Source: Acidimicrobiaceae bacterium (GTDB lineage: Bacteria; Actinomycetota; Acidimicrobiia; Acidimicrobiales; Bog-793). From it: a stretch of 45,064 nucleotides of DNA. This document shows positions 7,217 through 23,865 of this stretch, one piece after another. The stretch lies in the NCBI GenBank assembly GCA_003139355.1, contig PLIM01000063.1, positions 1 through 45,064 on the forward strand, in the 5' to 3' direction. The stretch's first letter is position 1; every line of letters begins with the position of its first letter. The position numbers and the translations under genes are program-made. The notes beneath the pieces were generated by a model. It did no database searches. It was not told the origin of the DNA and saw only the letters and a program-made list of their open reading frames with translations.

Positions 7217-8668
7217 TTGAGGAGCCCGCGGGCGGCGAGCGACTGGCCTGCGATCATCCAGGGCGGCATGGGTGTCGGCGTCTCGGGGTGGCCCCTGGTA
7301 CGGGCAGTTGCGCTTACGGGCCAGCTCGGTGTGGTCTCGGGAGTGGCGCTGGACACCCTCCTCGCCCGCCGTCTCCAGCTGGGAGACCCGGGAGGTCACA
7401 TCCGCCGGGCGCTGGCGAGCTTCCCGCACGCCGACACCTCTGAGCAGATCCTGGGCCGCTACTTCATCGAAGGCGGCATCGATCCCGTAAAGCCGTTCCG
7501 CCTGGTGCCGCGCCTGTCGCTGAATCCGAGCCGGCAGGCCACCGATCTCATCGTCGCGGCCAACTTCGTGGAGGTATTCCTCTCCAAGGAGGGCCACGAA
7601 GGCCTGGTCGGGGTCAACTACCTGGAGAAGATTCAGATGGCCACCCCGGCGGCGACGTACGGCGCCATGCTCGCGGGAGTCGACTACGTGCTTGTCGGCG
7701 CCGGCATCCCCGCCGAGTTCCCCGGTCTCCTTGATTCGCTGGCCGCCGGGCGTGCCGGCGAGATCGCCGTCGACGTGCTCGGCGCAGGGGCCGCTCGGTT
7801 CGCGGTCGCAGTGCGCCCAGAATCGATCTCCGGTGCGAAAGTGGAGTTGCGTCGGCCGAAGTTCCTCGCCATCGTCGCTTCCCATGTGCTGGCCTCGTAT
7901 CTCGCTCGCGATGCCCGCACGTGCCCTGACGGGTTCGTGGTCGAAGGGCCCGTGGCAGGCGGCCACAATGCTCCGCCTCGTGGTCCGCTCAGCTTTGACG
8001 AGGAGGGTCAGCCGATCTACGGGCCTCGTGACGTGGTCGATCTGGAGAAGTTGGCAATGTTGGGGCTGCCTTACTGGCTTGCCGGTGCCTACGCGAGCCC
8101 CGAGTCGCTCGTACAGGCCCGCGAGGCCGGGGCAACCGGTATCCAGGTCGGCTCCGCGTTCGCCCTCTGCGAGGAGTCGGGCTTCGACGCCTCGTTGAAA
8201 CGTGCCTTCATCGAGAAGGCCCTCTCCGGCACCCTCCACGTGCGCACCGATTCGCTGGCCTCGCCCACCGGCTTTCCTTTCAAGGTGGCCGACCTGCCAG
8301 GGACTGTCGCGGTGCCTGAGGTGTACGCCGAGCGCCGGCGGGTGTGCGAGGCCGGCTATCTACGGGTTCCCTACCGCGGACAAGACGGTGAGATCGGGTA
8401 CCGTTGCCCCGCCGAGCCGGCTTCGGCCTACCTCCGCAAGGGCGGGAAGATGGACGACACGATCGGGCGACGCTGCGTTTGCAACGGGCTGATCGCGGCG
8501 ATCGGGCTGGGTCAGCGCCACCGCGACGGAGCCGTAGAGCCGCCCCTCGCGACCATCGGACAGGACCTCTCGTTCCTCCCGAAGCTGGTCGGCGCCAGCC
8601 GCGACAGCTACAGGGCAGCGGACGTCGTGGCCTATCTCCTGCAAGGCGGCGGCCGCGACGGCCCATGA
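7217..8668 (+). CDS. Nitronate monooxygenase-like flavoprotein
   Basis: FMN-dependent TIM-barrel protein of the 2-nitropropane dioxygenase/NMO superfamily, 483 residues. The opening AIIQGGMGVGVSGWPLVRAV is the family start. EGPVAGGHNAPPRG carries the glycine-glycine-histidine FMN/catalytic motif, and GATGIQVGSAFALCEESG is the phosphate-binding region. The C-terminal 100 residues extend beyond classic NMOs and hold four cysteines (RRVCEAG, GYRCP, RRCVCNGL). The TTG at 7217 follows a GAGG and is preferred; the frame is open from a GTG at 7181. The true substrate is unknown, since many members are not nitroalkane oxidases. Confidence 0.8.
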   Translation: MRSPRAASDWPAIIQGGMGVGVSGWPLVRAVALTGQLGVVSGVALDTLLARRLQLGDPGGHIRRALASFPHADTSEQILGRYFIEGGIDPVKPFRLVPRLSLNPSRQATDLIVAANFVEVFLSKEGHEGLVGVNYLEKIQMATPAATYGAMLAGVDYVLVGAGIPAEFPGLLDSLAAGRAGEIAVDVLGAGAARFAVAVRPESISGAKVELRRPKFLAIVASHVLASYLARDARTCPDGFVVEGPVAGGHNAPPRGPLSFDEEGQPIYGPRDVVDLEKLAMLGLPYWLAGAYASPESLVQAREAGATGIQVGSAFALCEESGFDASLKRAFIEKALSGTLHVRTDSLASPTGFPFKVADLPGTVAVPEVYAERRRVCEAGYLRVPYRGQDGEIGYRCPAEPASAYLRKGGKMDDTIGRRCVCNGLIAAIGLGQRHRDGAVEPPLATIGQDLSFLPKLVGASRDSYRAADVVAYLLQGGGRDGP

Positions 8669-8750
8669 AGCGAGCCGACGCCGGCGCCGATGCGAACAGC
8701 GACCGCCAGCGCCTCGGGAGCCTGGCTGGCGCGGCCCCGACGAAGCCGCC

Positions 8751-8756
8751 TATAAT
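8751..8756 (+). promoter_or_regulatory. -10 element of the marR promoter
   Basis: A perfect TATAAT, rare in such GC-rich DNA, ends six bases before the GTG at 8763. This is the same spacing as the leaderless Gfo/Idh promoter at 7003-7008. Confidence 0.6.
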
Positions 8757-8774
8757 ACTTACGTGCCACAAGTA
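8756..8774 (+). promoter_or_regulatory. Probable MarR operator
   Basis: TACTT (8756-8760) and AAGTA (8770-8774) form a perfect five-base inverted repeat with a nine-base spacer. The palindrome overlaps the last base of the -10 box, the predicted transcription start and the GTG start codon. MarR repressors typically bind palindromes of 16-20 bp over their own promoter, so this fits autorepression. Confidence 0.5.
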
Positions 8775-9275
8775 ACTAGTATGGGCCGCGGAGGCGAGGG
8801 GCTGAAGCTCGCCGACGGATCGGTCAACCAGATCCAAGGCGCGTTCGGAATTGTGGCCCGCTCCATGGGCCAGGTCCGTGTCCACGAGCGCCTGCTCCAA
8901 GCAGCGGGCGTCCGGCTCGACCGGGCCGGGGCGGCCCTGCTCCACATGCTCCAGGTACGCGGGGACTCGGTGCGGGTGACGGGGCTGGCCGACTTGCTCG
9001 GTGTCGACACGCCGACGGTCACGCGCAAGATCCAGCAGCTCGAGCGGGGTGGATTGGTGGCCCGCCACGCCGATGCCGATGACCACCGCGCCACCCGCAT
9101 CCGGCTGACTCCGGCCGGGCGACGGACGCTCGAGCGGGTGTCCAGGGCCCGGCGGGCTTGGTTCGGACGGCTGCTCGAGGGCTGGGACGACGTGGACCTG
9201 GCGGCCTTCGCATCGATGCTCGGACGGTTCGCGGACTCATTGGAGCGTGACTTGGAAGACGCCCGTGGCAGCTGA
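8763..9275 (+). CDS. MarR family transcriptional regulator
   Basis: Winged-helix repressor of 170 residues. Helix-turn-helix about residues 60-82 (VTGLADLLGVDTPTVTRKIQ), wing with HADADDHRATRIRLTPAGRR, and helical dimerisation ends. MarR proteins usually release DNA on binding small phenolic or drug-like ligands. The gene lies 97 bases ahead of two ABC exporter genes on the same strand, a common arrangement for self-regulated efflux. GTG at 8763 appears leaderless; an ATG at 8781 is possible but has no ribosome-binding site either. The predicted operator covers its own start, so the exporter is probably repressed with it. Confidence 0.9.
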   Translation: MPQVTSMGRGGEGLKLADGSVNQIQGAFGIVARSMGQVRVHERLLQAAGVRLDRAGAALLHMLQVRGDSVRVTGLADLLGVDTPTVTRKIQQLERGGLVARHADADDHRATRIRLTPAGRRTLERVSRARRAWFGRLLEGWDDVDLAAFASMLGRFADSLERDLEDARGS

Positions 9276-9372
9276 GCCTGCCGTCGGTCCGGCGGCCGCC
9301 CATGCACGATCTCGACGCCACCTTGGGGCTGGTTGCGCGACTTGCCCAGCCGCGCCAAATGGGGGCTAGCCG

Positions 9373-11103
9373 ATGCTGATCAGCCTTGTGCAACGCTATC
9401 TCGGTCGGTACACCCGCCAGGCGTGCCTGGTCGTCACGCTGCTGGTCGTGCAGGCAGTCGCAAACCTCTACTTGCCGAATCTGACTGCCGACATCATCAA
9501 CAACGGCATCGAGAAGGGCGACATCCACTACATCTGGACGACGGGGGCGTGGATGCTCGGCATCACGCTCGTGGTGGGGGCAATGTCGATGGTGGCTGTG
9601 TACTTCGCCTCCAGGGTCTCCATGGGCATAGGCCGGGACATCCGCAGTGCCGTCTTCAAGTCAGTGCAGCGCTTCTCTGCACAGGAGATCAACCACTTCG
9701 GGACGCCCTCGCTCATTACGCGCAACACCAACGACGTCCAGCAGATCCAGCTGTTCCTGCAGATGGCTCTCACGATCATGGTGCTCGCGCCGATCATGTG
9801 CGTCGGCGGCGTGATCATGGCGCTGAAAGAGGACGTGAGACTCTCGGCGCTCCTCGTGGTCGTCGTCCCGGTCATGCTCGTCGTCATCTCGATCCTGATG
9901 GCCAAGGCGGTCCCGTTGTTCAGGTCGATGCAGTCCAGGATCGACCGGGTCAATCTCGTTCTTCGCGAACAGATCACCGGCGTGCGGGTCATCCGGGCGT
10001 TCATCCGCACCGGCCAGGAACAGCAGCGATTCGCGGACGCGAACGGGGCACTGACCACTACAGGACTCCGGGTGAACCGCATGTTCGCACTGGCGCTGCC
10101 GACTGTCATGGGGGTGATGAATCTCACCTGTGTCGCGGTGCTCTGGTTCGGCGGCCACCTGATCGCCAGCGGGACCATGCCGATCGGCAACCTCACGGCT
10201 TTCCTCAGCTACATCCTGCAGATCCTCATGTCCGTGATGATCGCCGTGATGATGGTGATCCTCCTACCGCGGGCAGTCGCCAGCGCCGACCGGATCGAGG
10301 AGGTGCTGCGCGCTGAACCTTCGGTCCTGGATCCGGCAGACGCCGTCGTCCCCCCGTCCTCGGCGGGACTGGTGGAGCTGCGAGATGTCGTCTTCGGGTA
10401 TCCGGGGGGTGAGGAGCCGGTGCTGCACGACCTGTCGTTCTCGCTGCTGCCAGGTGAGACCACAGCGATCATCGGTGGCACGGGCTCGGGCAAGACCACG
10501 CTGCTCAACCTCATCCCTCGCTTGTTCGACGTCACGAGCGGCGCCGTGCTCGTCGACGGGGTCAACGTGGCGGACCAGGCGCGGGGCGCCCTCTGGGCGA
10601 AGATCGGGATGGTGCCGCAGCAGGCGTACCTGTTCAGTGGCACAGTGGCGGAGAACCTGCGTTTCGGCCGGCCCGACGCCACCGACGAAGAGCTGTGGCA
10701 GGCACTCGGGGTCGCCCAGGCGAGCGATTTCGTGTCCGCAATGCCGGGCGGCCTTGAAGCAGAGATCACCCAGGGGGGCACGAACGTGTCCGGCGGCCAG
10801 CGCCAGCGGTTGTCCATCGCACGGGCGCTCGTGAAGCGGCCGGCCATCTACCTGTTCGACGACTGTTTTTCCGCCCTGGACGCGGCCACCGACGCGAAGC
10901 TCCGCGGAGCCCTCAGATCCGAGACCACGGACGCGACCGTGCTGATCGTGGCGCAGCGTGTCAGCACGATCCTGCACGCCGACCGGATCATCGTGCTCGA
11001 CGACGGGCGGGTCGTGGGGATCGGCCGGCACGAGGAGCTCCTGTCGACCTGTGCCGAGTACCGGGAGATCGTCACCTCCCAGCTCGGTGAGCAAGCCGCA
11101 TGA
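9373..11103 (+). CDS. ABC exporter subunit with degenerate ATP site
   Basis: Half-transporter of 576 residues: six membrane helices (about 1-310) then an ATPase domain. Walker A GGTGSGKTT is near residue 368, the C-loop VSGGQ near 472, and Walker B is LFDDCFSALD near 495. The residue after the Walker B aspartate is aspartate where hydrolysing sites have glutamate. This D-D pattern marks the degenerate-site subunit of heterodimeric exporters such as TM287/288 and BmrCD. The partner gene overlaps it by four bases (ATGA), so the two are translated together. Substrate probably a drug or lipophilic metabolite, judging by the MarR gene upstream. The start is ATG at 9373 after a G-rich stretch. Confidence 0.92.
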   Translation: MLISLVQRYLGRYTRQACLVVTLLVVQAVANLYLPNLTADIINNGIEKGDIHYIWTTGAWMLGITLVVGAMSMVAVYFASRVSMGIGRDIRSAVFKSVQRFSAQEINHFGTPSLITRNTNDVQQIQLFLQMALTIMVLAPIMCVGGVIMALKEDVRLSALLVVVVPVMLVVISILMAKAVPLFRSMQSRIDRVNLVLREQITGVRVIRAFIRTGQEQQRFADANGALTTTGLRVNRMFALALPTVMGVMNLTCVAVLWFGGHLIASGTMPIGNLTAFLSYILQILMSVMIAVMMVILLPRAVASADRIEEVLRAEPSVLDPADAVVPPSSAGLVELRDVVFGYPGGEEPVLHDLSFSLLPGETTAIIGGTGSGKTTLLNLIPRLFDVTSGAVLVDGVNVADQARGALWAKIGMVPQQAYLFSGTVAENLRFGRPDATDEELWQALGVAQASDFVSAMPGGLEAEITQGGTNVSGGQRQRLSIARALVKRPAIYLFDDCFSALDAATDAKLRGALRSETTDATVLIVAQRVSTILHADRIIVLDDGRVVGIGRHEELLSTCAEYREIVTSQLGEQAA

Positions 11104-13064
11104 GCACACCCGCCGCGCGGCAGCGACCAGGTGCGAGACGAGGCTTCGGTGGACCGGGCCGACCGGGGATGTCCATGCCGGTCGAGCGGCCCAAGGACTT
11201 CCGCAACACCGTGCGGCGTCTCGGGCGACGACTGAGGCCTGAGAAGATCCGCATCGCTTTCGTGATCGTGATGACCTCCGGGAGCGTGGCGTTCACTGTG
11301 TTCGGTCCGAAGATCCTCGGCAGCGCGACCGATGTCCTGTTCAACGGGGTCATAGGAAAGCGCCTGCCAGCAGGGATGTCCAAACAGCAGGCCATTGCCC
11401 TCTTGCGCTCGAGGGGCGAAGGACAGCTCGCCGACATGATCAGGGGAATGTCGATCACTCCCGGATCGGGAGTCGATTTCGGCCATCTCGGCAGGCTGCT
11501 CGGCCTCGCCGCGCTCGTGTACATCTTCGGAGCCATGCTCAACTGGGCTCAGGGCTACGTGATGGCAGGGGTCGCGCAGCGAACCGTGTACCGCATGCGC
11601 GAGGACGTGGAGTCCAAGCTCGCTCGGCTGCCGTTGCGGTACTTCGACCGGCACTCCCATGGCGACATCCTGAGCCGCGTCACCAACGACATCGACAACG
11701 TCACCACGACGCTCCAGCAGGGCTTGAGCCAGCTGCTCAACTCGGGGCTCACGATTCTCGGTGTGATCGCGATGATGTTCTGGATCAGCCCGCTGCTGGC
11801 CGGCGTCTCGCTCATAACGATCCCGCTGTCGATCGTCGTGACGTTCTTTGTCGCTCGCCGCTCGCAGGTGCAGTTCGCCGCGCAGTGGGAGCGCACAGGA
11901 GCGCTGAACGGCCACGTCGAAGAGATGTACACGGGTCATGCTCTCGTGCAGATATTCGGGCGGAGCGACGCGTCCATAGAGGAGTTCGACCGCCAGAACG
12001 AGCCCCTGTACGAGGCGAGCTTTCGCGCCCAGTTCCTTTCCGGTGTGATCCAGCCTGCGATGCAGTTCCTTGCCAACTTGAACTACGTGGTGATAGCGGT
12101 CCTCGGCGGGTACCGCGTCGCGTCGGGAGCGCTCTCGCTCGGGGACGTGCAGGCTTTCATCCAGTACTCGCGCCAGTTCACGATGCCGATCACCCAGGTG
12201 GCAAGCCAGATGAACCTCTTGCAGTCGGGGGTTGCCTCGGCCGAACGGGTCTTCGCGCTGCTGGATGCCGAGGAGGAGGAGCCGGACTGTCCCCAGCCGG
12301 CACAGCTCCTCGACCCGGACGGGCGCGTGGATCTCGAGCACGTGGGCTTCCAGTACGAGCCCGAGCAGGCACTGATCAAAGACTTCAGCCTTTCGGTCTC
12401 ACCGGGTCAGACCGTCGCGATCGTCGGGCCTACGGGTGCGGGCAAGACGACGATCGTGAACCTTCTCATGCGTTTCTACGAGATCGACTCGGGAGGCGTC
12501 CTGCTCGATGGCATAGACGCGCGCAACCTCGTCCGTGACGACGTGAGGCGGACGTTCGGCATGGTTCTTCAGGACACGTGGCTGTTCACAGGGACGATCC
12601 GAGACAACATCGCGTACGGGCGCGAGGGCGCCACGAGCGAGGAGGTAATTGCCGCCGCCGAGGCGGCGCACGTCGATCACTTCGTGCGGACCCAGCCGCA
12701 GGGGTACGACACCGTGGTGGACGAGGACGCCTCCAACATCTCGGCCGGCCAGAAGCAGCTCATCACGATCGCTCGGGCGTTCGTCGCGAACCCGACGATC
12801 CTCATCCTCGATGAGGCAACGAGCAGCGTCGATACGCGCACCGAGGTCCTCATCCAACAGGCGATGGCCCGCTTGCGCCACGGCCGGACGAGCTTCGTCA
12901 TCGCTCACCGGCTCTCGACCATCCGCAACGCGGACACGATCGTCGTCATGGACGCCGGTCGGATCGTCGAGCAGGGCAGCCATGCCGAGCTCATCGCCCG
13001 ACAGGGCTTCTACGCCGGGCTGTACGAGAGCCAGTTCACCGAGGCCTTCGTGGAGACGGTCTGA
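11100..13064 (+). CDS. ABC exporter subunit with catalytic ATP site
   Basis: Second half of the heterodimeric exporter, 654 residues. It begins with a soluble arginine/glycine-rich leader of about 45 residues, then six membrane helices and an ATPase domain. Walker A GPTGAGKTT lies near residue 442 and Walker B ILDEATSSVD near 568, with the catalytic glutamate present. The C-loop is ISAGQ instead of SGGQ. Between the first two helices is a longer loop (about residues 80-125) with KRLPAGMSKQQAIALLRSRG, absent from the partner and typical of this subunit in actinobacteria. The ATGA overlap with the upstream gene gives fixed stoichiometry. Together the two subunits have one working and one degenerate ATP site. 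Confidence 0.93.
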   Translation: MSTPAARQRPGARRGFGGPGRPGMSMPVERPKDFRNTVRRLGRRLRPEKIRIAFVIVMTSGSVAFTVFGPKILGSATDVLFNGVIGKRLPAGMSKQQAIALLRSRGEGQLADMIRGMSITPGSGVDFGHLGRLLGLAALVYIFGAMLNWAQGYVMAGVAQRTVYRMREDVESKLARLPLRYFDRHSHGDILSRVTNDIDNVTTTLQQGLSQLLNSGLTILGVIAMMFWISPLLAGVSLITIPLSIVVTFFVARRSQVQFAAQWERTGALNGHVEEMYTGHALVQIFGRSDASIEEFDRQNEPLYEASFRAQFLSGVIQPAMQFLANLNYVVIAVLGGYRVASGALSLGDVQAFIQYSRQFTMPITQVASQMNLLQSGVASAERVFALLDAEEEEPDCPQPAQLLDPDGRVDLEHVGFQYEPEQALIKDFSLSVSPGQTVAIVGPTGAGKTTIVNLLMRFYEIDSGGVLLDGIDARNLVRDDVRRTFGMVLQDTWLFTGTIRDNIAYGREGATSEEVIAAAEAAHVDHFVRTQPQGYDTVVDEDASNISAGQKQLITIARAFVANPTILILDEATSSVDTRTEVLIQQAMARLRHGRTSFVIAHRLSTIRNADTIVVMDAGRIVEQGSHAELIARQGFYAGLYESQFTEAFVETV

Positions 13065-14659: not shown

Positions 14660-16513
14660 GTGCTCGCCGCCAGTAGCCCGACTGCCGGGTCGATCTTGGC
14701 CGGGCGCGTGCCAGGGCGCCGCCACCATCGCTGGCCACTTGTCTGGGAGGGTGCGGCCGTCGCGCTTTCGCCCCTCTTCGCCTTCTTCGTGTTGAGGATC
14801 CGGGCCATGTCGCCACTCGAATTGCCCGACCCCAGCATGCACACCATCTACATCGTCGATCCGCACGAGATGTACATCCGCTATGCGGCTGCCTTCACCC
14901 CGACCGCGCGACTGCGTGAGGGCGCCCAGGTGGGATTCCTCGTTCTCGCCCGTCTCGCCTATCTAGCCTTCGGTGCCGTCCCCGGCTTCTTCGCCACGCG
15001 CTACCTCTTCGCTCTGATAGCCATAGTGCCCGCCTACCTACTGCTCAGGCGGCTCTATGGCATCCCCGCCGGCGCGCTGGCTATCGTCGCCCTGCTCAGT
15101 TCGCCCGTCGTCATCACCGCCTGGGGGACCGACTACCCGGACTCGGCCGTGATCTCCTACATAGCTGGAGCCGTCGCTTGCCTCGCGATGCCTTGCCGGG
15201 ACCGATGGCGTTCGGCTTGGCTCGGCCTCGCGGGCGTGTTGCTGACGCTGGCGATCTGGTCCCACGGAATGGGTATCGTGCTCGCCGGCACCACCATCGC
15301 CGTGTACGCCGCTGTGCGCCTCCTGCGGACCAGGCGACATCTCCTTCGAGACGGCATCCTCCTGGCGGGGCTCGCTGTCTTGGTGACGCTGCTCCTCATG
15401 GTCGCTTCGGCCCACATCTTCGGCCAGTTCGACTTCATCCGGCCGACGCTCGCCGCCGCGGCCTACTTGAACCAGCCGGGCCAGGTACGACTGTTTCACT
15501 CCGCGAATTGGCGCTGGGCTCCGTACTTGGCGTACCTGTTGGTCCCTCCTGCGGTCATCGTCGCGTTCTGGGTCACCTTCGCACGAAGGTTGCGCGCGGT
15601 CCCCACTGCCCAACTGTTCGTCGGTCTCGCATGCACCGCCCAGTTCGCCGTCTTCGCCTACCTGCAGTTCTCCTACCACGTCGAGACACTCGAGATGCAC
15701 TACTTCTCCTCGACTCTCTGGGGCGTGATCTGCCTGGCCCTGGCCGTGACCCTGGCCGAGATCGGCCGGCCGCTGTCGACTCGCCACTTGGCGCGTTGGC
15801 TCCCGGCGATTCTCCTTGTTGCCGTCCCGCTCGCGTACGAGGCCTACCCGCATGTACCGGCATTCGGGTGGGTGCCCGCTGGCGTGGCCTTGGCCGCGGT
15901 CCCGGTCGTCCTCGCCGTGATCATGCGGCTCGACACCCGTCGGCGCACAGCGCCCTCGGCTTGCCGAGGCAGGCTCGGCCTGGGCGTGGCGGCGACCGTC
16001 ATCGCCGTGACGGGGTCCCTGCTCGTTCTTACGGTCGCGCCGAGCCCTCCGCTCCCAGCCTTCCGGGGGCTCGCCATCGCGGAGGACCCGCCTGCCTCAT
16101 ATGCGGGCGCTCTCGGCGGCAGCGCCAACCTCCTGATCGACTGGTACCAGATCAGCGCGGACCTCCCGTCGTTCGTGGGCAACGCCGCCTACAGCGGCGA
16201 GCAGCTGTTGATGTGGTTGCCCGGCAACCAGATCGGCGAGCTCATGGGGCCGATCGGCATGTATCACGGCGGGTTCAACTTCTTGCCGACCGGTCTCCCG
16301 ATCCTCAGTGCGCCAGATGCGGCGACACTCGAGAGCAGGCGGCCAGCAGAGCTGCTCCTGCTCAGCACGACGGGCGCCCAGTTCGAGGCCGCCCTCGTGG
16401 CCCTCGGGCCTTATCAGCCCGTCCTCGCTCGCACGACGGTCATGCGCCAGGGGACGACCGTGCTTCATGCGTGGTTGATCGTCCTCAGATACTTCGCCCG
16501 GCACGCCGTCTGA
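14660..16513 (+). CDS. Polytopic membrane protein, likely GT-C type glycosyltransferase
   Basis: 617 residues with about 11-13 hydrophobic segments. After the first helix, the large loop has LPDPSMHTIYIVDPHEMYIR: acidic residues in the first outer loop are where GT-C enzymes (which use polyprenyl-phosphate sugars) keep their catalytic aspartates. A C-terminal outer domain follows the last helix (about residue 470 on), then a final short hydrophobic stretch. I do not recognise a specific family; the call rests on topology, the acidic loop and the neighbours. The start is GTG at 14660. A 246-base gap follows before the next gene. Confidence 0.65.
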   Translation: MLAASSPTAGSILAGRVPGRRHHRWPLVWEGAAVALSPLFAFFVLRIRAMSPLELPDPSMHTIYIVDPHEMYIRYAAAFTPTARLREGAQVGFLVLARLAYLAFGAVPGFFATRYLFALIAIVPAYLLLRRLYGIPAGALAIVALLSSPVVITAWGTDYPDSAVISYIAGAVACLAMPCRDRWRSAWLGLAGVLLTLAIWSHGMGIVLAGTTIAVYAAVRLLRTRRHLLRDGILLAGLAVLVTLLLMVASAHIFGQFDFIRPTLAAAAYLNQPGQVRLFHSANWRWAPYLAYLLVPPAVIVAFWVTFARRLRAVPTAQLFVGLACTAQFAVFAYLQFSYHVETLEMHYFSSTLWGVICLALAVTLAEIGRPLSTRHLARWLPAILLVAVPLAYEAYPHVPAFGWVPAGVALAAVPVVLAVIMRLDTRRRTAPSACRGRLGLGVAATVIAVTGSLLVLTVAPSPPLPAFRGLAIAEDPPASYAGALGGSANLLIDWYQISADLPSFVGNAAYSGEQLLMWLPGNQIGELMGPIGMYHGGFNFLPTGLPILSAPDAATLESRRPAELLLLSTTGAQFEAALVALGPYQPVLARTTVMRQGTTVLHAWLIVLRYFARHAV

Positions 16514-16743: not shown

Positions 16744-16759
16744 CGTGAAGGAGCAGCGT

Positions 16760-18751
16760 GTGCAGTCGACATCGGGTGGAGTAGTGGAGTTCAGCCCGCC
16801 GCCGGACCCGCTTGTCTCGGTGATCATCGTCGCGACAGGTGCTGCGCCGGACCTACTGGGGTGCCTTCGTGCCCTGGCCGCGAACACCAAGGATGTGCCG
16901 TTCGAGGTCATCGTGGTCGAGAACGGCCTCGCGCCAGGCGTCTCGAATGACCTCGCGTTCGGGACGCGAGGTGTCACCATCGTCCGCTCCGGAGTCAACC
17001 GGGGCTTTGCCGGCGGCTGTAACCTAGGTGCGCGCAAAGCGCTCGGCACCTATTTGGTTCTCTTGAACGATGACGCCGAGCCGCAACCCGGCTGGTTGCC
17101 GCCTCTCATAGAGGCAGGCGAAGTCCCTGGAGTGGGTGCAGTCGGCGGCCGCGTCCTGCTCTCGGACGGGACCTTGCAGGAGGCCGGCTCGATCATCTGG
17201 CACGACGGCGGGAGCTTTGGCGTAGGTCGTGATCTGCCCGGGGACGCCGTCTCGTTGCGATTTCGCCGGCGTGTCGAATACTGCAGCGCGCTGTCACTCC
17301 TGGTCCGTCGCGAGACTTTCAACGAGCTGGGAGGTCTCGACGAGGGCTATTTCCCGGCCTACTACGAGGATGTCGACTTCTGCCTCAAGATCGCCCAGCG
17401 CGGGGAAGTGGTGCTTTACGAGCCCCGCTCGGTCGTCCGCCATTTCGAGTCGAGGAGCTCGACCCAACGGTTCAAGGAGTTCCTTTGCCTTACGCATCGC
17501 ACCAGGCTGATGGAACGATGGCCGGAGGTGTTCGAGGGGCCAACGCATGCGGTTCCGATCGATGACGACTCGGTCGAGGAGGCGATCCATCTTGCCATGG
17601 GGTCACCGCCACGGGTGCTCGTGATCGACGACCGCCTGCCCGACTTGCGACTCGGCTCTGGTTACTCGCGGATGTTCGACGTCGTGCGAGACATATCAAC
17701 AGCGGGCTATCGGGTTTCGGTCTCTCCGACGGCCGCTGACGACGGCGATGTCGACGCGCTCGGAGCCTTGGGTGTCGGGGTTGTGACCGAGCCGCTCGCC
17801 GAGCACCTTCGTCGGCGCACGGTGCGCTACGAGGCGGTGATCGTCTCACGCCCCCACAACTTCAAGCGCTACGGGTGGATGGTCCGTGAGCTGCAACCCG
17901 ATGCACACCTGTGCTACGACGCGGAGGCGTTGTTCTATCGCCGTCTCGAAGCGCAGGCCGAGCTCGCCGGCTCCGAGGCTGCTCGCGAGGCCTTGTGCAG
18001 CGCCGCTGACGACTCCCGCACGATCGAAGCCGAGATCGCGCGCGCGGTCGACACGATCGTTTGCGTGTCCAGCGACGAAGCGGCCGCGCTTCGCGCGCTC
18101 GGTGCACGCGAGCCGTTTGTCGTGGAGCCCTGGCTCAGCGAGCCGGCGCTCACACCGGCAGGGTTCGCTGCGCGCTCTGACGCGTTCTTGGTGGCGGGTT
18201 GGTTGGCCGGGCCGGAGTCGCCGAACGTTGACGGACTTCTCTGGTTCGTGCGGGACGTGCTGCCAATGGTCCTGGCCCGGCTGCCGTGGGTCCGAATCCG
18301 CGTCTCCGGCAGCGCGCCACCGCAGGCGGCGCTCGAAGTCGGGGGGCGTGGCATCTCCTTCGAGGGTCACGTAGGCAACATCGCGGACTTCTACGGCCGG
18401 ACCCGTGCCTGCATCGTGCCGCTCAGGTACGGGGCAGGCGTGAAGATCAAGACCGTCGAGGCGCTCCAGTACGGCGTGCCGACGGTGGCCACGAGCGTCG
18501 GTGCCGAGGGCATCGATCTACGCGGTACCGCTGCACTCTCTGTCGCCGACGATGCCAGGGACTTCGCGCTCGCGCTGACCTCGTTGCTCACCGATCGCGT
18601 GGCCTGGGAACAACGACGCGCCGAGATCGAGGCGCTGGACGCGCTGCGCCGATCCGAAGCGTCCTGTGTCACGTGGGGCTCTATCCTGGCAGAAGTCTTG
18701 GGCGAGCGCGGGGCATTAGAATCGCGAACGGAACGGAGGGCGGCCACATGA
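16760..18751 (+). CDS. Two-domain glycosyltransferase (GT2-GT4 fusion)
   Basis: 663 residues that join two transferases. The N-terminal GT2 domain (about 15-250) is of the rhamnosyl/WbbL type: VSVIIVATGAAPDLLGCLRA, NRGFAGGCNLGARKA, VLLNDDAEP as the D-x-D region, and AYYEDVDFCLKIAQRG. The C-terminal GT4 domain (about 280-640) has GPESPNVDGLLWFVRDVLP and the donor-binding PLRYGAGVKIKTVEALQYGV. Such a fusion can add two sugars in turn to one growing chain. The GTG at 16760 is chosen because AAGGAG lies six bases upstream; an earlier in-frame GTG at 16745 lies inside that signal. It leads a three-gene operon and overlaps the next gene by four bases. Confidence 0.9.
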   Translation: MQSTSGGVVEFSPPPDPLVSVIIVATGAAPDLLGCLRALAANTKDVPFEVIVVENGLAPGVSNDLAFGTRGVTIVRSGVNRGFAGGCNLGARKALGTYLVLLNDDAEPQPGWLPPLIEAGEVPGVGAVGGRVLLSDGTLQEAGSIIWHDGGSFGVGRDLPGDAVSLRFRRRVEYCSALSLLVRRETFNELGGLDEGYFPAYYEDVDFCLKIAQRGEVVLYEPRSVVRHFESRSSTQRFKEFLCLTHRTRLMERWPEVFEGPTHAVPIDDDSVEEAIHLAMGSPPRVLVIDDRLPDLRLGSGYSRMFDVVRDISTAGYRVSVSPTAADDGDVDALGALGVGVVTEPLAEHLRRRTVRYEAVIVSRPHNFKRYGWMVRELQPDAHLCYDAEALFYRRLEAQAELAGSEAAREALCSAADDSRTIEAEIARAVDTIVCVSSDEAAALRALGAREPFVVEPWLSEPALTPAGFAARSDAFLVAGWLAGPESPNVDGLLWFVRDVLPMVLARLPWVRIRVSGSAPPQAALEVGGRGISFEGHVGNIADFYGRTRACIVPLRYGAGVKIKTVEALQYGVPTVATSVGAEGIDLRGTAALSVADDARDFALALTSLLTDRVAWEQRRAEIEALDALRRSEASCVTWGSILAEVLGERGALESRTERRAAT

Positions 18752-19215
18752 GAAAGCTGCCAGATCCCAGACGGCCGGTCACCGGCCGGGAGCTCACGCG
18801 TGACGAACGCTCCGAGGACGGGGCCCGGCTCAACCTCCAGCACGCCAGCGAGACCAGCGATTTGGCTCGCGCGCGGTCGCGTGTCTCACGCGAAGGACAT
18901 GCCAATGACGAGCTCGTGGAGGAGCTGGAGCTACGCCTTCGAGAGTGGGTCGAGCGAGTGGACGCCCTCGAGACGGAGATGGGGTACCTCAAGCGAGATC
19001 TGGAGGTCCGTATCGCCTATGCCCTCGAGCTGGAACGCCAGCTGGACTACCACGTGGGCGCTGTGCGCTACGCGCAGAACGAGGTTGAAGCGATTCGTGC
19101 CCGAACCGCCTACCGCGTCGTGGACGGCATGGTGCGGCGGGTTGCCACCAAGCCGGCGCTCTACCGTTTCGCACGCAGCTGGGCTCAAAGGATGATGGCC
19201 TGGCGTGAGAGCTGA
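18748..19215 (+). CDS. Coiled-coil protein of glycan locus
   Basis: 155 residues, soluble, with no known catalytic motif. Residues about 50-115 form a strongly charged coiled coil (ELVEELELRLREWVERVDAL, then ETEMGYLKRDLEVRIAYALE). A basic helical tail includes RTAYRVVDGMVRRV and KPALYRFARSWAQRM, a tail type often found at the ends of glycosyltransferases. ATG at 18748 overlaps the stop of the GT fusion (ATGA) and has GGAGGG upstream. Its stop is overlapped in turn by the FkbM gene. The tight coupling suggests it holds the transferase and methyltransferase together, or acts as a length ruler; this is inference. Confidence 0.75.
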   Translation: MRKLPDPRRPVTGRELTRDERSEDGARLNLQHASETSDLARARSRVSREGHANDELVEELELRLREWVERVDALETEMGYLKRDLEVRIAYALELERQLDYHVGAVRYAQNEVEAIRARTAYRVVDGMVRRVATKPALYRFARSWAQRMMAWRES

Positions 19216-20146
19216 CCGACCGGACAACACGCGAACAGAGACCCGCCCGGGAGGCTCCAGTCCCGACCGGATGGTGTCGTATGCAGCGAGTGCAGAGGAC
19301 GTCGTCCTGCACAGGGCTCTCTGCCGCGGCCGCGTCGGCGTCGGCCGGTACGTGGATGTAGGAGCTTCCTCTCCCTACTTGAGCTCGGTGACGAGACACT
19401 TCTACGACGCAGGCTGGAGCGGCATCGATGTCGAGCCTCTCGCGGAGGAGGCGGCGGAACTGCGCCGGGCTCGGCCGCGAGACGTCGTGGTCGAGGCGGC
19501 GCTCGGAAGTGCCGCTGGCGAGGTCACCCTCTACGTCGTAGGTGACGAACGCGGCCTCTCGAGCACAGACGCGGAGGTGGGCGCCGGCTACGTCCGAGCC
19601 GGTCGCCCGGTGCGAGAGCGCGTGGTCAGACTCCGTACGCTGGCAGATGTCCTCGACGAGCACTGCTCCGGTGAGGTCTCCTTCCTCAAGGTCGACGTGG
19701 AGGGCGCGGAGCCCGAAGTGCTGTCGGGCAACGACTGGTCGCGGTGGCGTCCGAGGGTGGTTGTGGTGGAGGCAACCGATCCCTGGTCGTACCAGCAGAC
19801 GCACTCGCGCTGGGAGCCACAGCTCTTGGCAGCCGGGTATCTCTTCGCTTGCTTCGACGGGATCAACCGGTTCTACGCGCGCTCTGAGGAGCCAGATCTC
19901 GTGCCGCTGCTCGCGCCGGCAAGCGTGCTGGACAACTTTGTGTCGGAGAACCTCAACCGTGTCGAGGGGTACGTTCGTCATCTCGAGGCGGAGCTGAAGG
20001 CGCGGAGCTCGCATGTGGCAGAGCTCGAGACTTTCGTCGGCCGCCAAGAGGAGCAGATCCGCGTCAGGGACCGCCGCATCGCCGAGCTCGAAGCCCGCAT
20101 CGCCCAGGCACGCGCCACGGCAAAGGACTCCAAGGGGCGGGCCTGA
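19205..20146 (+). CDS. FkbM family methyltransferase with coiled-coil tail
   Basis: SAM-dependent methyltransferase, 313 residues, likely O-methylating a sugar in the glycan. YVDVGASSPYLSSVTRHFY is the SAM-binding motif I, GWSGIDVEPL follows, and FLKVDVEGAEPEVL is the FkbM motif. From about residue 240 the protein becomes coiled coil (YVRHLEAELKARSSHVAELE, then EEQIRVRDRRIAELEARIAQ), an addition to the normal FkbM domain of roughly 220 residues. GTG at 19205 overlaps the coiled-coil gene by 11 bases; an ATG at 19271 is an alternative that keeps the catalytic domain. End-modifying methyltransferases with coiled coils are known to cap O-antigen chains (WbdD type), so capping is a reasonable guess. 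Confidence 0.85.
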   Translation: MRADRPDNTRTETRPGGSSPDRMVSYAASAEDVVLHRALCRGRVGVGRYVDVGASSPYLSSVTRHFYDAGWSGIDVEPLAEEAAELRRARPRDVVVEAALGSAAGEVTLYVVGDERGLSSTDAEVGAGYVRAGRPVRERVVRLRTLADVLDEHCSGEVSFLKVDVEGAEPEVLSGNDWSRWRPRVVVVEATDPWSYQQTHSRWEPQLLAAGYLFACFDGINRFYARSEEPDLVPLLAPASVLDNFVSENLNRVEGYVRHLEAELKARSSHVAELETFVGRQEEQIRVRDRRIAELEARIAQARATAKDSKGRA

Positions 20147-20180: not shown

Positions 20181-22655
20181 TCAAATCCCCGCGCGAGCCG
20201 GGCTCGCGATGTCCCCCGGATCCGGCCCGTGCTGGTCGTCTCCGCCTGAGTTCGGACCGGGCGCTTTGCGCAGCCTCCTCGGAGCGGCGCGCTCGCGGCA
20301 CGCGACCTCGGCCGCCTCGAACGCCGGGGCGAACGACTCGCCGAGGTCCGCACGCACCAGCTCGGGTCGCGGCCTGCGCCAGGCAAGCGGCCAGATCGCC
20401 CACGCGAGCAGTGCGGCGAGGGTGGCTAGAGCAAGCCAGGTTCCGATGACCAGCCGCGCCGGCAGGTACCAGAGGTGGATGACGTGAGGGCCGGCGGGGA
20501 CCGCTGCCTCTAACATCAGGCCCCTGTAGCGCGACAGCGCCAACGCGCGGCCGTCGATCGAGGCGTGCCACCCGGGCAGGTCGGTCACGCGCATGACGAG
20601 CTGGCTTGGTGCCGAGGCGTCGATCCTGAGTGTCCAGCTGCTCGCCACGGGATGTCTTATGGAAGACACCGGCCGCGATGCGCCCGAGCCGCCCCTGGTG
20701 ATCAAGGAGAAGCGCGTCGCGCCGGGAACTGCGTAGAGGCGCTCGCCCGCGAACGACCCGGCATAACGGGTGCCGGGCGGCGCTGGCAGCGAAGTCCCCG
20801 GCTCCTGCAGGATCCACGCGATCCCGTACTCGCGGGCGAGCGCGGCGGAGCCGATGTCGGGCTCGACATAGGACATTCCGCCCCGGCTCGTGAAGTACAC
20901 CTGCGGAATCACCGGATCGTGGCCCGCATACTCGGCGATCCCATAGCCGAGGTTGGCGTTCGGGTAGAAGCCGACAGGCTCGATCGTCTGCGACTGGGTC
21001 GGCGTTCCGGTGTCCAACCCGACCAGACCAGAGCCCACGACCGCCTTCAGCCGCGCAATTGCAGGCGTTACCGGGAAGAAGCTCTTGCTGTAGGTGTTGA
21101 TACCGACTCCGGAGAACAGAAGGAAGGCCGACTCTGCGCCGAAGAGCACCACTGCTCCCGCGACAACGATCCGCCGGGCGGACGGCCGGCGCGCGAACCT
21201 GCGTGCGAACAGGAACAGGCCGCCGGCCAGAACGCATGCCGCCACCAGCCCGATTGGCCACCAAAGGCTGTCGAGCCTGAGTTCGTGACGCGCCGCCGGG
21301 AGCTTGCCGCTGAAAGCCCGGTACCACAGGAAGGCGACGAACACGGCGACAATCGCGCTCATGACCCAGTAGGTGATCAACATGCGGCGCTCGCCCCGCG
21401 CGCGAAGCAAGGTCTCGAGCCCCAAAGCTGCCAGCACGCCGAGCGGCAAACCGACGATCGCGCGCATCCGGCTGATCGGCAGGCTGTCCAGGCCCGAGTG
21501 CTTCAAGAGGGTGTATACGACATGGAACGACCTTGTCTGGTAGGAGATCGCCATGGCGACCACTACCATGGCGGCCAGAGCGACAACCGTCGGGTGCCGC
21601 CACCAGCGCAGCACTGCAGCCCCGGCCAGGACGAGCGCGATGACCCCGACGTAGGCGACCGTCTCGTAGTAGTTGTTCCTCGGGTAGAAGAACGCGCTTC
21701 CGTTGATCGGCAGCCCGTAGTACCCCGGCGTGACGAGCAGCGCGAGAGCGCGCGCATCGAGGCCCGCGAAACCTGTCAGGGTCCCGCGATGACTGCCCTT
21801 GACTGCCTGCAGTCCCGGGAGCCACAACGGTGCCGAGAGAGCGCCCCCCGCGAGGACCCCGATGACGACTCGCACGACGCCCGAGAGCGACAGCCGCCGC
21901 CTGCCTACAAGTGCCAGGGCCGTCAGCACGACGAAGAAGACCGCGAGCGCCCCCGCGACGAAGAAGTACGCCTCGGGAAACCCCCCGTACACGCAGAAGG
22001 CGACCGACAGCGCCAGCAGGACCACGTAGGAGCGCCTTGCCTTCCAGCGGTAGGCGAGGATCGCGAGCGCCGCGATCCACCCGAGCCAGGCCACCACGTC
22101 CGACAGGGGCCAGGTGAGCCATCCGGCGAACGCGCCTGAGAGCATGAATGTGATTCCGCCCAGCGCCGAGGCGAGGGGTCGCAGGCCGAGGACACGGCAC
22201 AGCACGTAGGCACCGGTCCCGGCGATGAGGAGCTTCATCGCCACGACGACGAGAAACGCGTACCGGAGCGGAGCGAGATAGCTCACAAGATCGGGCAGGC
22301 TCAAGACGGCCGACTGGAAGTTGAGGAACTGGTTCAGCCCGAGCAGGCTCAGGTCGTTCCAGAGCGGGAACTGCAAATGGTGGATCGCTGTCCAGTCGAA
22401 GGCGTTGAACGGCACCATCAAGGTGACCGAGTCGCCGTTCAGCACGTTGTGAGGCGCGCCAGGGTATGCGCCGGTGCCGAGTGAGCTGAAGGAGATGACG
22501 GTGTCGAAGCTGCCGAAGCTCCCGCCGTCCTTGACCGACGGCGACACGTAGGCCAGGACGAAGCCGAGGATGGCCGAGAGGCCGAACACGTCGGTGCCAT
22601 GGCGTAGCCACCAACGCGCGACACGCCCCCGAGATGGCGCAGACACGCCTGTCAC
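20181..22655 (-). CDS. Large YfhO-like membrane protein
   Basis: About 824 residues with 12-14 membrane helices and a long outer C-terminal domain, the layout of YfhO (PF09586) proteins, which in Gram-positives take part in glycosylating surface polymers. Typical features are GGSFGSFDTVISFSSLGTG and NGDSVTLMVPFNAFDWTAIH in the first outer loop, FPLWNDLSLLG, and the late motif DLPGWHASIDGRALALSRYR. The frame is open up to 22823, but the first 56 residues look like non-coding sequence, so GTG at 22655 (or 22646) is preferred; neither has a clear ribosome-binding site. It converges on the FkbM gene with only 34 bases between them and is divergent from the next GT2. Function inferred from family and context. 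Confidence 0.8.
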   Translation of the reverse strand: MTGVSAPSRGRVARWWLRHGTDVFGLSAILGFVLAYVSPSVKDGGSFGSFDTVISFSSLGTGAYPGAPHNVLNGDSVTLMVPFNAFDWTAIHHLQFPLWNDLSLLGLNQFLNFQSAVLSLPDLVSYLAPLRYAFLVVVAMKLLIAGTGAYVLCRVLGLRPLASALGGITFMLSGAFAGWLTWPLSDVVAWLGWIAALAILAYRWKARRSYVVLLALSVAFCVYGGFPEAYFFVAGALAVFFVVLTALALVGRRRLSLSGVVRVVIGVLAGGALSAPLWLPGLQAVKGSHRGTLTGFAGLDARALALLVTPGYYGLPINGSAFFYPRNNYYETVAYVGVIALVLAGAAVLRWWRHPTVVALAAMVVVAMAISYQTRSFHVVYTLLKHSGLDSLPISRMRAIVGLPLGVLAALGLETLLRARGERRMLITYWVMSAIVAVFVAFLWYRAFSGKLPAARHELRLDSLWWPIGLVAACVLAGGLFLFARRFARRPSARRIVVAGAVVLFGAESAFLLFSGVGINTYSKSFFPVTPAIARLKAVVGSGLVGLDTGTPTQSQTIEPVGFYPNANLGYGIAEYAGHDPVIPQVYFTSRGGMSYVEPDIGSAALAREYGIAWILQEPGTSLPAPPGTRYAGSFAGERLYAVPGATRFSLITRGGSGASRPVSSIRHPVASSWTLRIDASAPSQLVMRVTDLPGWHASIDGRALALSRYRGLMLEAAVPAGPHVIHLWYLPARLVIGTWLALATLAALLAWAIWPLAWRRPRPELVRADLGESFAPAFEAAEVACRERAAPRRLRKAPGPNSGGDDQHGPDPGDIASPARAGI

Positions 22656-23064
22656 CGTACCGATTCCGGTGCTCGCCTGGCTGGCCTCAGTGCTTGGCCG
22701 ATTGCGCGCCTTGGGTAGGTGCGCGAGGAGCCGGGGGCTGGGAGATCCACGAGGACAAAGGCTGCCCGGACGTGACTGACAGCGTCTGGACCGGCCTCCA
22801 TCAGGATGGCAAGTTTGGCACAAGCGGCCGGCCGTTGCGAGCTACGACGGTACAGGTCGTCCCGCGTCGTGGTCCTCGGGCACTGCCGATTATCTGTGAC
22901 ACGGAGTTTCCCTCAGCCGTCGTCGCGCTGGTCAAGCGAAACGTCGCACCGCCATCGTGTACCACCACCAGTGCCTGCACTAGCTCATGGGCACTATCTT
23001 GGAGCCCACGTCGCGCGAAGTCTTCACCAGTCCGCGCAACCCTTGAACTTCAGGAGCTCCAGGC
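22656..23064. other. Intergenic region between divergent glycan genes
   Basis: About 409 bases between the YfhO-like gene and the GT2 gene. The region must hold promoters for both directions. AGGAG at 23052-23056 is the ribosome-binding site of the GT2 gene. TATCTT near 22995 could be its -10 box, without a good -35. Open frames crossing the region have no coding signature. Confidence 0.3.
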
Positions 23065-23865
23065 ATGGGAAACATCTCGGACCACCAGCAAACTCGTCTG
23101 CGGGCGCTCCAGCGGCTCGTCATCGACCTCGGGCGGCAGGACTTCGACGAGCGCTACCGCGACCTCGAGCTGACGCCGGTCGTGGGTTTGATCTGCGCCT
23201 ACGAGGAGGAGGCCAACATCGGCGACGTGCTCAGGCGCGTGCCGAAGGTGGCATGCGGGCTGGACGTCACACCTCTTGTGATCGTCGACGGCGGCGAGGA
23301 CGAGACCGCTCGAGTCGCCATGGAAGGCGGGGCTGTGACCTTCGTGTTCCCAGTGAACCTGGGTCACGGGGTGGCGCTACGTGTCGGCTATGACCTCTGT
23401 GTGGCCCTAGGGGCCCGGTACGTGGTCACACTCGATGCCGACGGCCAGAACGACCCCGCCGAGATGCCCCAGCTGCTCCAGCCGCTAGTGGCTGACGAGG
23501 CCGACTTCGTTGTGGCCTCCCGGCGCCTGGGCGTGGACAAGACGGGGGACCGCTACCGTCAATTGGGCGTGGTGTTCTTCGCTGCGCTGATGAACTTTTT
23601 GACAGGCGCCCATCTCACCGACACGTCCAACGGCTTCCGGGCCCTGCGGGTGGCGATGCTGGCGGACGTGAAAGGCCGGCTCGAGCAGGACCAGTACCAA
23701 ACGGCTGAGCTGCTCGTAACGTCGCTCAAGCGGGGATGGAGGGTGACCGAGCGCCCCGCCGTGTGGCACGAGCGGGCCTCGGGGCAGTCGAAGAAGGGCG
23801 GGAACATCCTCTACGGCTTCCGCTACGCCGCCGTGCTGCTCGGGACCTGGCGCCGCGAGCACTGA
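23065..23865 (+). CDS. Family 2 glycosyltransferase, polyprenyl-phosphate type
   Basis: 266 residues. GLICAYEEEANIGDVLRRVP starts the GT-A fold, LVIVDGGEDETARVA gives the nucleotide-binding aspartates, VTLDADGQNDPAEMP is the D-x-D of DPM-like enzymes, and DTSNGFRALRVAML is the acceptor-side motif. No membrane helix beyond the hydrophobic core is evident. ATG at 23065 follows AGGAG with eight bases between. It likely charges a lipid carrier with a sugar for the GT-C and YfhO-type enzymes nearby. It is the last gene of the glycan locus before central metabolism genes begin. Confidence 0.9.
   Translation: MGNISDHQQTRLRALQRLVIDLGRQDFDERYRDLELTPVVGLICAYEEEANIGDVLRRVPKVACGLDVTPLVIVDGGEDETARVAMEGGAVTFVFPVNLGHGVALRVGYDLCVALGARYVVTLDADGQNDPAEMPQLLQPLVADEADFVVASRRLGVDKTGDRYRQLGVVFFAALMNFLTGAHLTDTSNGFRALRVAMLADVKGRLEQDQYQTAELLVTSLKRGWRVTERPAVWHERASGQSKKGGNILYGFRYAAVLLGTWRREH

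What the first reader, a model, noticed from the sequence alone, without database searches (positions are those of the whole stretch)
16760..20146. Three-gene operon: GT2-GT4 fusion, coiled-coil protein and FkbM methyltransferase with coiled-coil tail
The genes overlap by 4 and 11 bases, so they are made together. The second protein is nearly all coiled coil, and the FkbM methyltransferase has an extra coiled-coil tail of about 70 residues. In WbdD systems a coiled coil measures chain length and the methyltransferase caps the chain. Here a bifunctional polymerising transferase, a free coiled coil and a tailed methyltransferase could form a similar ruler-and-cap assembly, in an actinobacterial surface glycan. 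The gene make-up is seen directly; the ruler idea is inference.
Basis: partly seen in the sequence, partly recalled or inferred. Interest (0 to 1): 0.65.

Follow-up and report, generated by a model that had tools for sequence, protein, structure and literature searches.

The report
Two-piece coiled-coil methyltransferase in glycan operon
A peat-soil actinobacterium makes, from one operon, a two-headed sugar-chain builder, a rod-shaped coiled-coil protein and a coil-bearing methyltransferase, and comparison with relatives suggests that the last two are a split version of a known enzyme design that caps surface sugar chains at a set length.

Summary
The three genes overlap by 4 and 11 bases, are conserved in order and overlap in sister species, and encode a GT2-GT4 fusion, a helical coiled-coil protein and an FkbM methyltransferase ending in a 65-residue helix. 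One correction: protein 2 is not nearly all coil. It is a 50-residue loose N-terminus, a coil (about 50-118) and a basic two-helix tail.

Relatives give the meaning. In many Acidimicrobiia the same FkbM subfamily is one polypeptide, FkbM-coil-tail; in three genomes it is fused on to GT4 modules. The window's FkbM stops where that tail would start, and the tail sits on protein 2. FkbM-coil genes often lie near Wzm/Wzt genes whose Wzt carries a carbohydrate-binding domain, the export system used by WbdD-type chain terminators. In the free-coil family the distance between two conserved anchors is 26, 47, 54, 61 or 68 residues, always a whole number of heptads apart.

Best reading: a coil-scaffolded assembly complex with a two-piece methyl-capping terminator, working like WbdD but not a member. 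Length control and capping remain inference. The window's Wzm/Wzt lies on another contig, some genera have the coil without a methyltransferase, and no specific coil pairing could be shown.

The parts
16745..18751 (+). GT2-GT4 fusion, 668 aa (candidate bifunctional polymerase): GT2 at about 16808-17539, GT4 at about 17612-18709
   Evidence: Pfam PF00535 61.9 bits and PF13692 65.7 bits, both over cut-off; NDD and YYEDVDF motifs read directly; homologues over both domains in 14 family-f1 genomes, split in two genes in G028 and G033
18748..19215 (+). free coiled-coil protein, 155 aa, start overlaps the GT stop by 4 bases (ATGA)
18895..19101 (+). coil of protein 2 (residues about 50-118, about 10 nm if one helix)
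   Evidence: COILS-like score; AlphaFold2 helix, pLDDT 90-98 over most of it
19102..19212 (+). basic two-helix tail of protein 2 (residues 119-155; motif TAYR...KPALYRFAR); candidate membrane or polymerase contact
   Evidence: tail profile finds it in free coils of other genera and at the end of one-piece FkbM-coil and methyltransferase-coil proteins; helices 120-134 and 136-154; net charge +6, but amphipathicity not above shuffles
19205..20146 (+). FkbM-family methyltransferase with C-terminal coil, 313 aa, start overlaps the coil gene by 11 bases
   Evidence: PF05050 3e-26, TIGR01444 over cut-off, AlphaFold2 mean pLDDT 88.7, FkbM crystal structure 2py6 among the fold matches, Z 12.6, rmsd 2.6, 157 aligned
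19946..20140 (+). C-terminal coil of the FkbM protein (residues 248-312); 89 residues follow the NRFY motif, against 92-93 before the tail aromatic residue in four one-piece relatives (67-126 over all nine measured)
14660..16513 (+). GT-C-like membrane glycosyltransferase upstream (weak PMT_2 match); neighbour conserved in the genus only, possibly part of the same glycan locus

Best explanation
The operon encodes a membrane-side glycan assembly unit. The GT2-GT4 protein extends a lipid-linked chain. Protein 2 is a rod with a basic tail at its C-terminus that sits at the membrane and holds the GT. The FkbM methyltransferase is held by its own coil some 10 nm from the growing point and O-methylates the chain end once the chain reaches it, so it acts as a cap. 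FkbM-coil (protein 3) plus coil-tail (protein 2) is a split form of a one-piece FkbM-coil-tail terminator found across Acidimicrobiia, which works like WbdD in Gram-negative bacteria. Shown: gene set, overlaps, coil and tail anatomy, one-piece and GT-fused homologues, whole-heptad length steps. Inferred: polymerase role, membrane contact, capping, length setting, coil-coil contact.
For: One-piece FkbM-coil-tail homologues in G172, G161, G418, G310, G198, G332, G168 and G661; fused on to GT4 modules in G268, G173 and G790, the order reported for Klebsiella O7 ORF6 (PMC11231755). Protein 3 ends 3-4 residues before the tail position of four relatives. Recurring kits with other cap enzymes: G004 GT2-GT4, coil-tail, then a class I methyltransferase with its own N-terminal coil; G010 coil-tail, methyltransferase with coil, GT4-GT4; G056 GT2-GT4 beside methyltransferase-coil-tail. 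Coil follows the GT2-GT4 in 12 of 14 family genomes. Coil spacer 26, 47, 54, 61 or 68 residues, all 5 modulo 7; chance about 4e-4. FkbM-coil next to Wzt with Wzt_C in G418 and in one run of genes with Wzm-Wzt_C in G790; within about 12 kb in 5 of 17 genomes, chance about 1e-6 if genes were placed at random.
Against: In the window genome Wzm/Wzt_C lie on another contig (C51) with their own GTs and a methyltransferase-like gene; Wzt_C is present in nearly every family genome with or without the operon. G014, G028 and G033 have the GT and coil with no methyltransferase nearby. Specific pairing of the two coils is not supported by charge pairing. Tail amphipathicity is not above shuffles in the window species. 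Whole-heptad steps are expected of any continuous coiled coil, ruler or not. FkbM enzymes also methylate internal sugars (general knowledge).
Confidence: 0.5

Rival explanations
1. Scaffold without ruler: the coil proteins bring GT and methyltransferase together at the membrane, and the FkbM enzyme methylates sugars inside the chain as it is made. Length is set elsewhere or not at all.
For: Coil accompanies the GT even without a methyltransferase; FkbM enzymes are general sugar O-methyltransferases (established knowledge); no Wzm/Wzt beside the window operon.
Against: FkbM-coil genes sit with Wzt_C transporters, which recognise chain ends in the characterised systems, in G418 and G790 and near them in four others; coil length stepped by heptads between conserved ends.
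Confidence: 0.35
2. The methyltransferase caps one glycan through the separate Wzm/Wzt system while the GT2-GT4 and free coil work on another; the operon is a convenience of expression, and the two coils form homo-oligomers that never touch.
For: Protein 2 charge pattern favours self-pairing (+6 of 18); GT and coil occur without FkbM; a single Wzt_C locus elsewhere in the genome.
Against: Exact conservation of both overlaps in the genus and of the order GT, coil, FkbM in three genera; coil-tail and FkbM also adjacent in family f36, with a GT2-GT4 about 2 kb further on (L181).
Confidence: 0.1
3. Chance neighbours: three unrelated proteins, the coil being a generic helix of no role in glycan assembly.
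For: Protein 2 evolves fastest of the three.
Against: Conserved order, purifying selection, coil after the GT in 12 of 14 family genomes, tail shared with methyltransferase fusions.
Confidence: 0.03

Closest known systems
WbdD/WbdA of E. coli O8/O9a and Klebsiella O3/O5 (PMC3482155, PMC11231755, PMC5082667)
   Same: Methyltransferase followed by an extended coil; a C-terminal membrane or polymerase contact after the coil; a separate dual-GT enzyme; O8/O5 WbdD adds methyl only
   Different: Catalytic domain is FkbM (PF05050), no kinase; the coil's membrane-side part is on a second polypeptide; coil about 10 nm against about 20 nm; transporter not in the operon; an actinobacterium, without LPS as far as known
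Klebsiella O7 ORF6 and O12 WbbB, single-chain terminator-coil-polymerase proteins (PMC11231755)
   Same: Relatives in G790, G268 and G173 have FkbM-coil-tail-GT4 in this order, and G050 a sulfotransferase-like domain-coil-GT2-GT4
   Different: The window has these modules in three proteins, with other catalytic families
Klebsiella O4 ORF7 system (PMC11231755)
   Same: Polymerase and terminator activities in separate proteins, the coil protein as scaffold
   Different: Terminator is a Kdo transferase (GT137) that carries its whole coil itself
FkbM methyltransferase family (PF05050, TIGR01444)
   Same: Protein 3 is a member by sequence
   Different: Subfamily in which a C-terminal coil was present in nearly every member read, often with tail and GT; no paper in the held library joins FkbM, coiled coil, polysaccharide and termination

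Membership tests
WbdD chain terminator | WbdD-type class I methyltransferase domain | tested here: not met
   Domain is Methyltransf_21/FkbM; no sequence match to any solved structure at 1e-3
WbdD chain terminator | kinase domain (O9a type; absent in the O8 type) | tested here: not met
   No kinase match in protein 3
WbdD chain terminator | extended coil directly after the catalytic domain | tested here: met
   Helix 248-312, coil score
WbdD chain terminator | C-terminal membrane-associated amphipathic helix after the coil, same chain | tested here: not met
   Protein 3 ends with the coil; a tail is on protein 2 and is fused in relatives
WbdD chain terminator | tail binds membrane and recruits the polymerase | not testable with these tools
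   Only charge and helix shape seen
WbdD chain terminator | Wzm/Wzt with carbohydrate-binding domain in the same pathway | tested here: inconclusive
   Present in the genome on another contig; linked to FkbM-coil genes in several relatives
WbdD chain terminator | coil length sets chain length | not testable with these tools
   Length varies by whole heptads among genera; glycan lengths unknown
FkbM methyltransferase family | PF05050/TIGR01444 domain over cut-off with SAM-site motif | tested here: met
   93 bits against 22.7; 69.4 against 37.7; YVDVGA and FLKVDVEGAE conserved
bifunctional GT2-GT4 glycosyltransferase | both GT domains over cut-off in one chain | tested here: met
   PF00535 and PF13692; catalytic activity not tested

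The most novel reading that the evidence does not exclude
A capping-and-measuring machine in actinobacteria in which the ruler is a separate, swappable protein graduated in heptads (spacer 26 to 68 residues) and the cap enzyme docks on to it by its own coil, so that lineages change cap chemistry (FkbM, other methyltransferase, perhaps sulfotransferase) and chain length independently.
Probability: 0.3. Interest if true: 0.75.

Novelty: new variant of a known kind. Interest (0 to 1): 0.52.

Why it matters
Chain-length rulers of the WbdD kind were worked out in Gram-negative O antigens. A two-piece form with FkbM as candidate cap in actinobacteria would extend the principle to another envelope type, give FkbM methyltransferases a definite role, and offer a natural series of coil lengths, from 26 to 68 residues between fixed anchors, with which the ruler idea can be tested directly.

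Tried and rejected
Charge-pairing score of the two coils: best hetero score reached by 1092 of 2000 shuffles, so no evidence for specific pairing. Wzt_C presence as evidence for the window operon: rejected, since nearly all family genomes have it. ABC exporters at 9373-13064 as glycan exporter: PF00664 type, not Wzm/Wzt, and no evidence links them to the glycan. MftF: protein 1 scores 99.7 against a cut-off of 280, so not a mycofactocin glycosyltransferase. Spacing in one-piece FkbM-coil-tail proteins measured from the catalytic domain is not heptad-stepped; the anchor lies outside the coil, so this is uninformative. Fold search of protein 3: generic methyltransferase fold, no sharper hint; WbdD was not among the rows shown, which excludes nothing. 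A mixed alignment of coils and FkbM proteins misaligned the coils and was dropped.

Full report
What is there. The three ORFs lie at 16745-18751, 18748-19215 and 19205-20146 on the + strand, with overlaps of 4 bases (ATGA) and 11 bases. Both overlaps are identical in sister species G002 and G003; in G001 the set falls on two contig ends. Protein 1 has a GT2 and a GT4 domain, protein 3 an FkbM domain. Protein 2 has no family match. All three are under purifying selection; protein 2 is the most variable in sequence (60-82% identity) but has the same length in three species, the pattern described for coiled-coil spacers (PMC5082667).

Anatomy. Protein 2 is not nearly all coil. Residues 1-50 are poorly predicted, about 50-118 form one helix with strong heptads (51-87 by a COILS-like score; 0 of 100 shuffles as high; the COILS matrix was retyped from memory), and 119-155 form two short helices with net charge +6.

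The free-coil family. Ten free coils align. The start of the coil and the tail are conserved, the length of the stretch between them is not. Between the anchors E96 and Y122 of protein 2 the distance is 26 in the window genus, 61 and 68 in genus g3, 47 in both coils of G019 and in G004, and 54 in G010. Three further members, counted by eye from the translations, give 47 (G028), 47 (G033) and 54 (G014). All are 5 modulo 7. Four further lengths agreeing by chance has probability about 4e-4. Any continuous coil may lengthen by whole heptads, so this shows a true coil of variable length, not a ruler as such.

The fused relatives. A search with the FkbM alignment over 395 genomes of the class found 21 genomes at 1e-30. 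In nearly all those read, a coil follows the FkbM domain. In G172, G161, G418, G310, G198, G332, G168 and, outside the class, G661, the coil ends in a basic tail that opens with S[WY] or a close variant, in the same chain. In G268, G173 and G790 GT4 modules follow the tail. Protein 3 has 89 residues after its NRFY motif; the tail aromatic lies 92-93 residues after it in G172, G161, G310 and G332, and at 67-126 over all nine measured. So protein 3 looks like a terminator without its tail, and protein 2 carries a tail of the same kind. A free coil-tail gene next to FkbM also occurs in G280, of another family, where a GT2-GT4 gene lies about 2 kb further on (L181).

The same kit with other enzymes. 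G004 has GT2-GT4, coil-tail and a class I methyltransferase with its own N-terminal coil. G010 has coil-tail, a methyltransferase of that kind and GT4-GT4. G056 has GT2-GT4 overlapping a methyltransferase-coil-tail fusion. G064 has a GT2 beside another such fusion. G050 has a protein with sulfotransferase-like motifs, a coil and a GT2-GT4 homologous to protein 1 in one chain (the sulfotransferase reading rests on motifs only). In the family, 12 of 14 genomes with the GT2-GT4 have a coil directly after it, also G014, G028 and G033, where no methyltransferase is near. The coil's constant partner is therefore the GT.

Export. In G418 the FkbM-coil-tail gene overlaps the gene for Wzt with the Wzt_C carbohydrate-binding domain by 4 bases, and in G790 Wzm, Wzt_C, GT4 and FkbM-coil-tail-GT4-GT4 form one run of genes. 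Five of 17 genomes have Wzt_C within about 12 kb of the FkbM-coil gene, about 1e-6 under random placement; glycan genes cluster anyway, so this overstates the link. In the window genome Wzm/Wzt_C is on contig C51 with its own GTs, and Wzt_C is near universal in the family, so its presence there proves nothing.

Mechanism and standing. In WbdD systems the terminator is held by a coil at a fixed distance from a membrane-bound polymerase and caps only chains that reach it (PMC3482155, PMC11231755, PMC5082667). The operon has the parts of such a machine in a new division. I put about 0.75 on a coil-scaffolded functional unit and about 0.5 on methyl capping with length setting. It works like WbdD but is not a WbdD: the catalytic family differs and the tail is on another chain. 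A direct test of coil pairing gave nothing, and complexes could not be modelled.

Limits. Gene calls in relatives are my own simple ORF picks. Counts of genomes are not independent events.

Noticed in passing
L129:7206-10526 (G050): 1106-aa protein with a sulfotransferase-like N-terminus (GMHRSGTS, RHPVEVAKSL), coil, basic stretch and a GT2-GT4 homologous to protein 1; no Pfam match for the N-terminus.
   Followed up: partly
L117:13889-15475, L119:6272-7858, L118:6808-8403, L120:2254-3672: FkbM-coil proteins of genera g3 and g17 carry a further domain of about 230 residues without Pfam match; motifs (TPGTGA, VTIGRHPFDAL) recall sulfotransferases.
   Followed up: partly
L117:7497-8768, L123:3898-5142, L121:6487-7914 and relatives: A protein of about 405 residues with an HEAYPGHHTEH motif (DUF885-like, below cut-off) sits directly or a gene or two upstream of the GT2-GT4 genes in seven family genomes but not next to the window operon.
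   Followed up: no
L144:7333-16758 (G000:C51): The genome's Wzm/Wzt_C locus with tandem GT4 genes and a protein with a conserved helical N-terminus and a weak methyltransferase match (8427-9455).
   Followed up: partly
L126:3579-6695 and L127 (G028, G033): Here the GT2 and GT4 halves are separate genes, each followed by its own coil protein; in both a sugar epimerase gene follows.
   Followed up: partly
window:13819-14589 and 23065-23865: Two GT2 proteins resembling polyprenyl-phosphate sugar transferases flank the region with two large membrane proteins (14660-16513, 20181-22823); the GT2 genes and the upstream membrane protein are conserved in the genus only.
   Followed up: partly
window:39612-41529: CDP-alcohol phosphatidyltransferase and lipid A acyltransferase-like gene overlapping, as in phosphatidylinositol mannoside clusters.
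   Followed up: no
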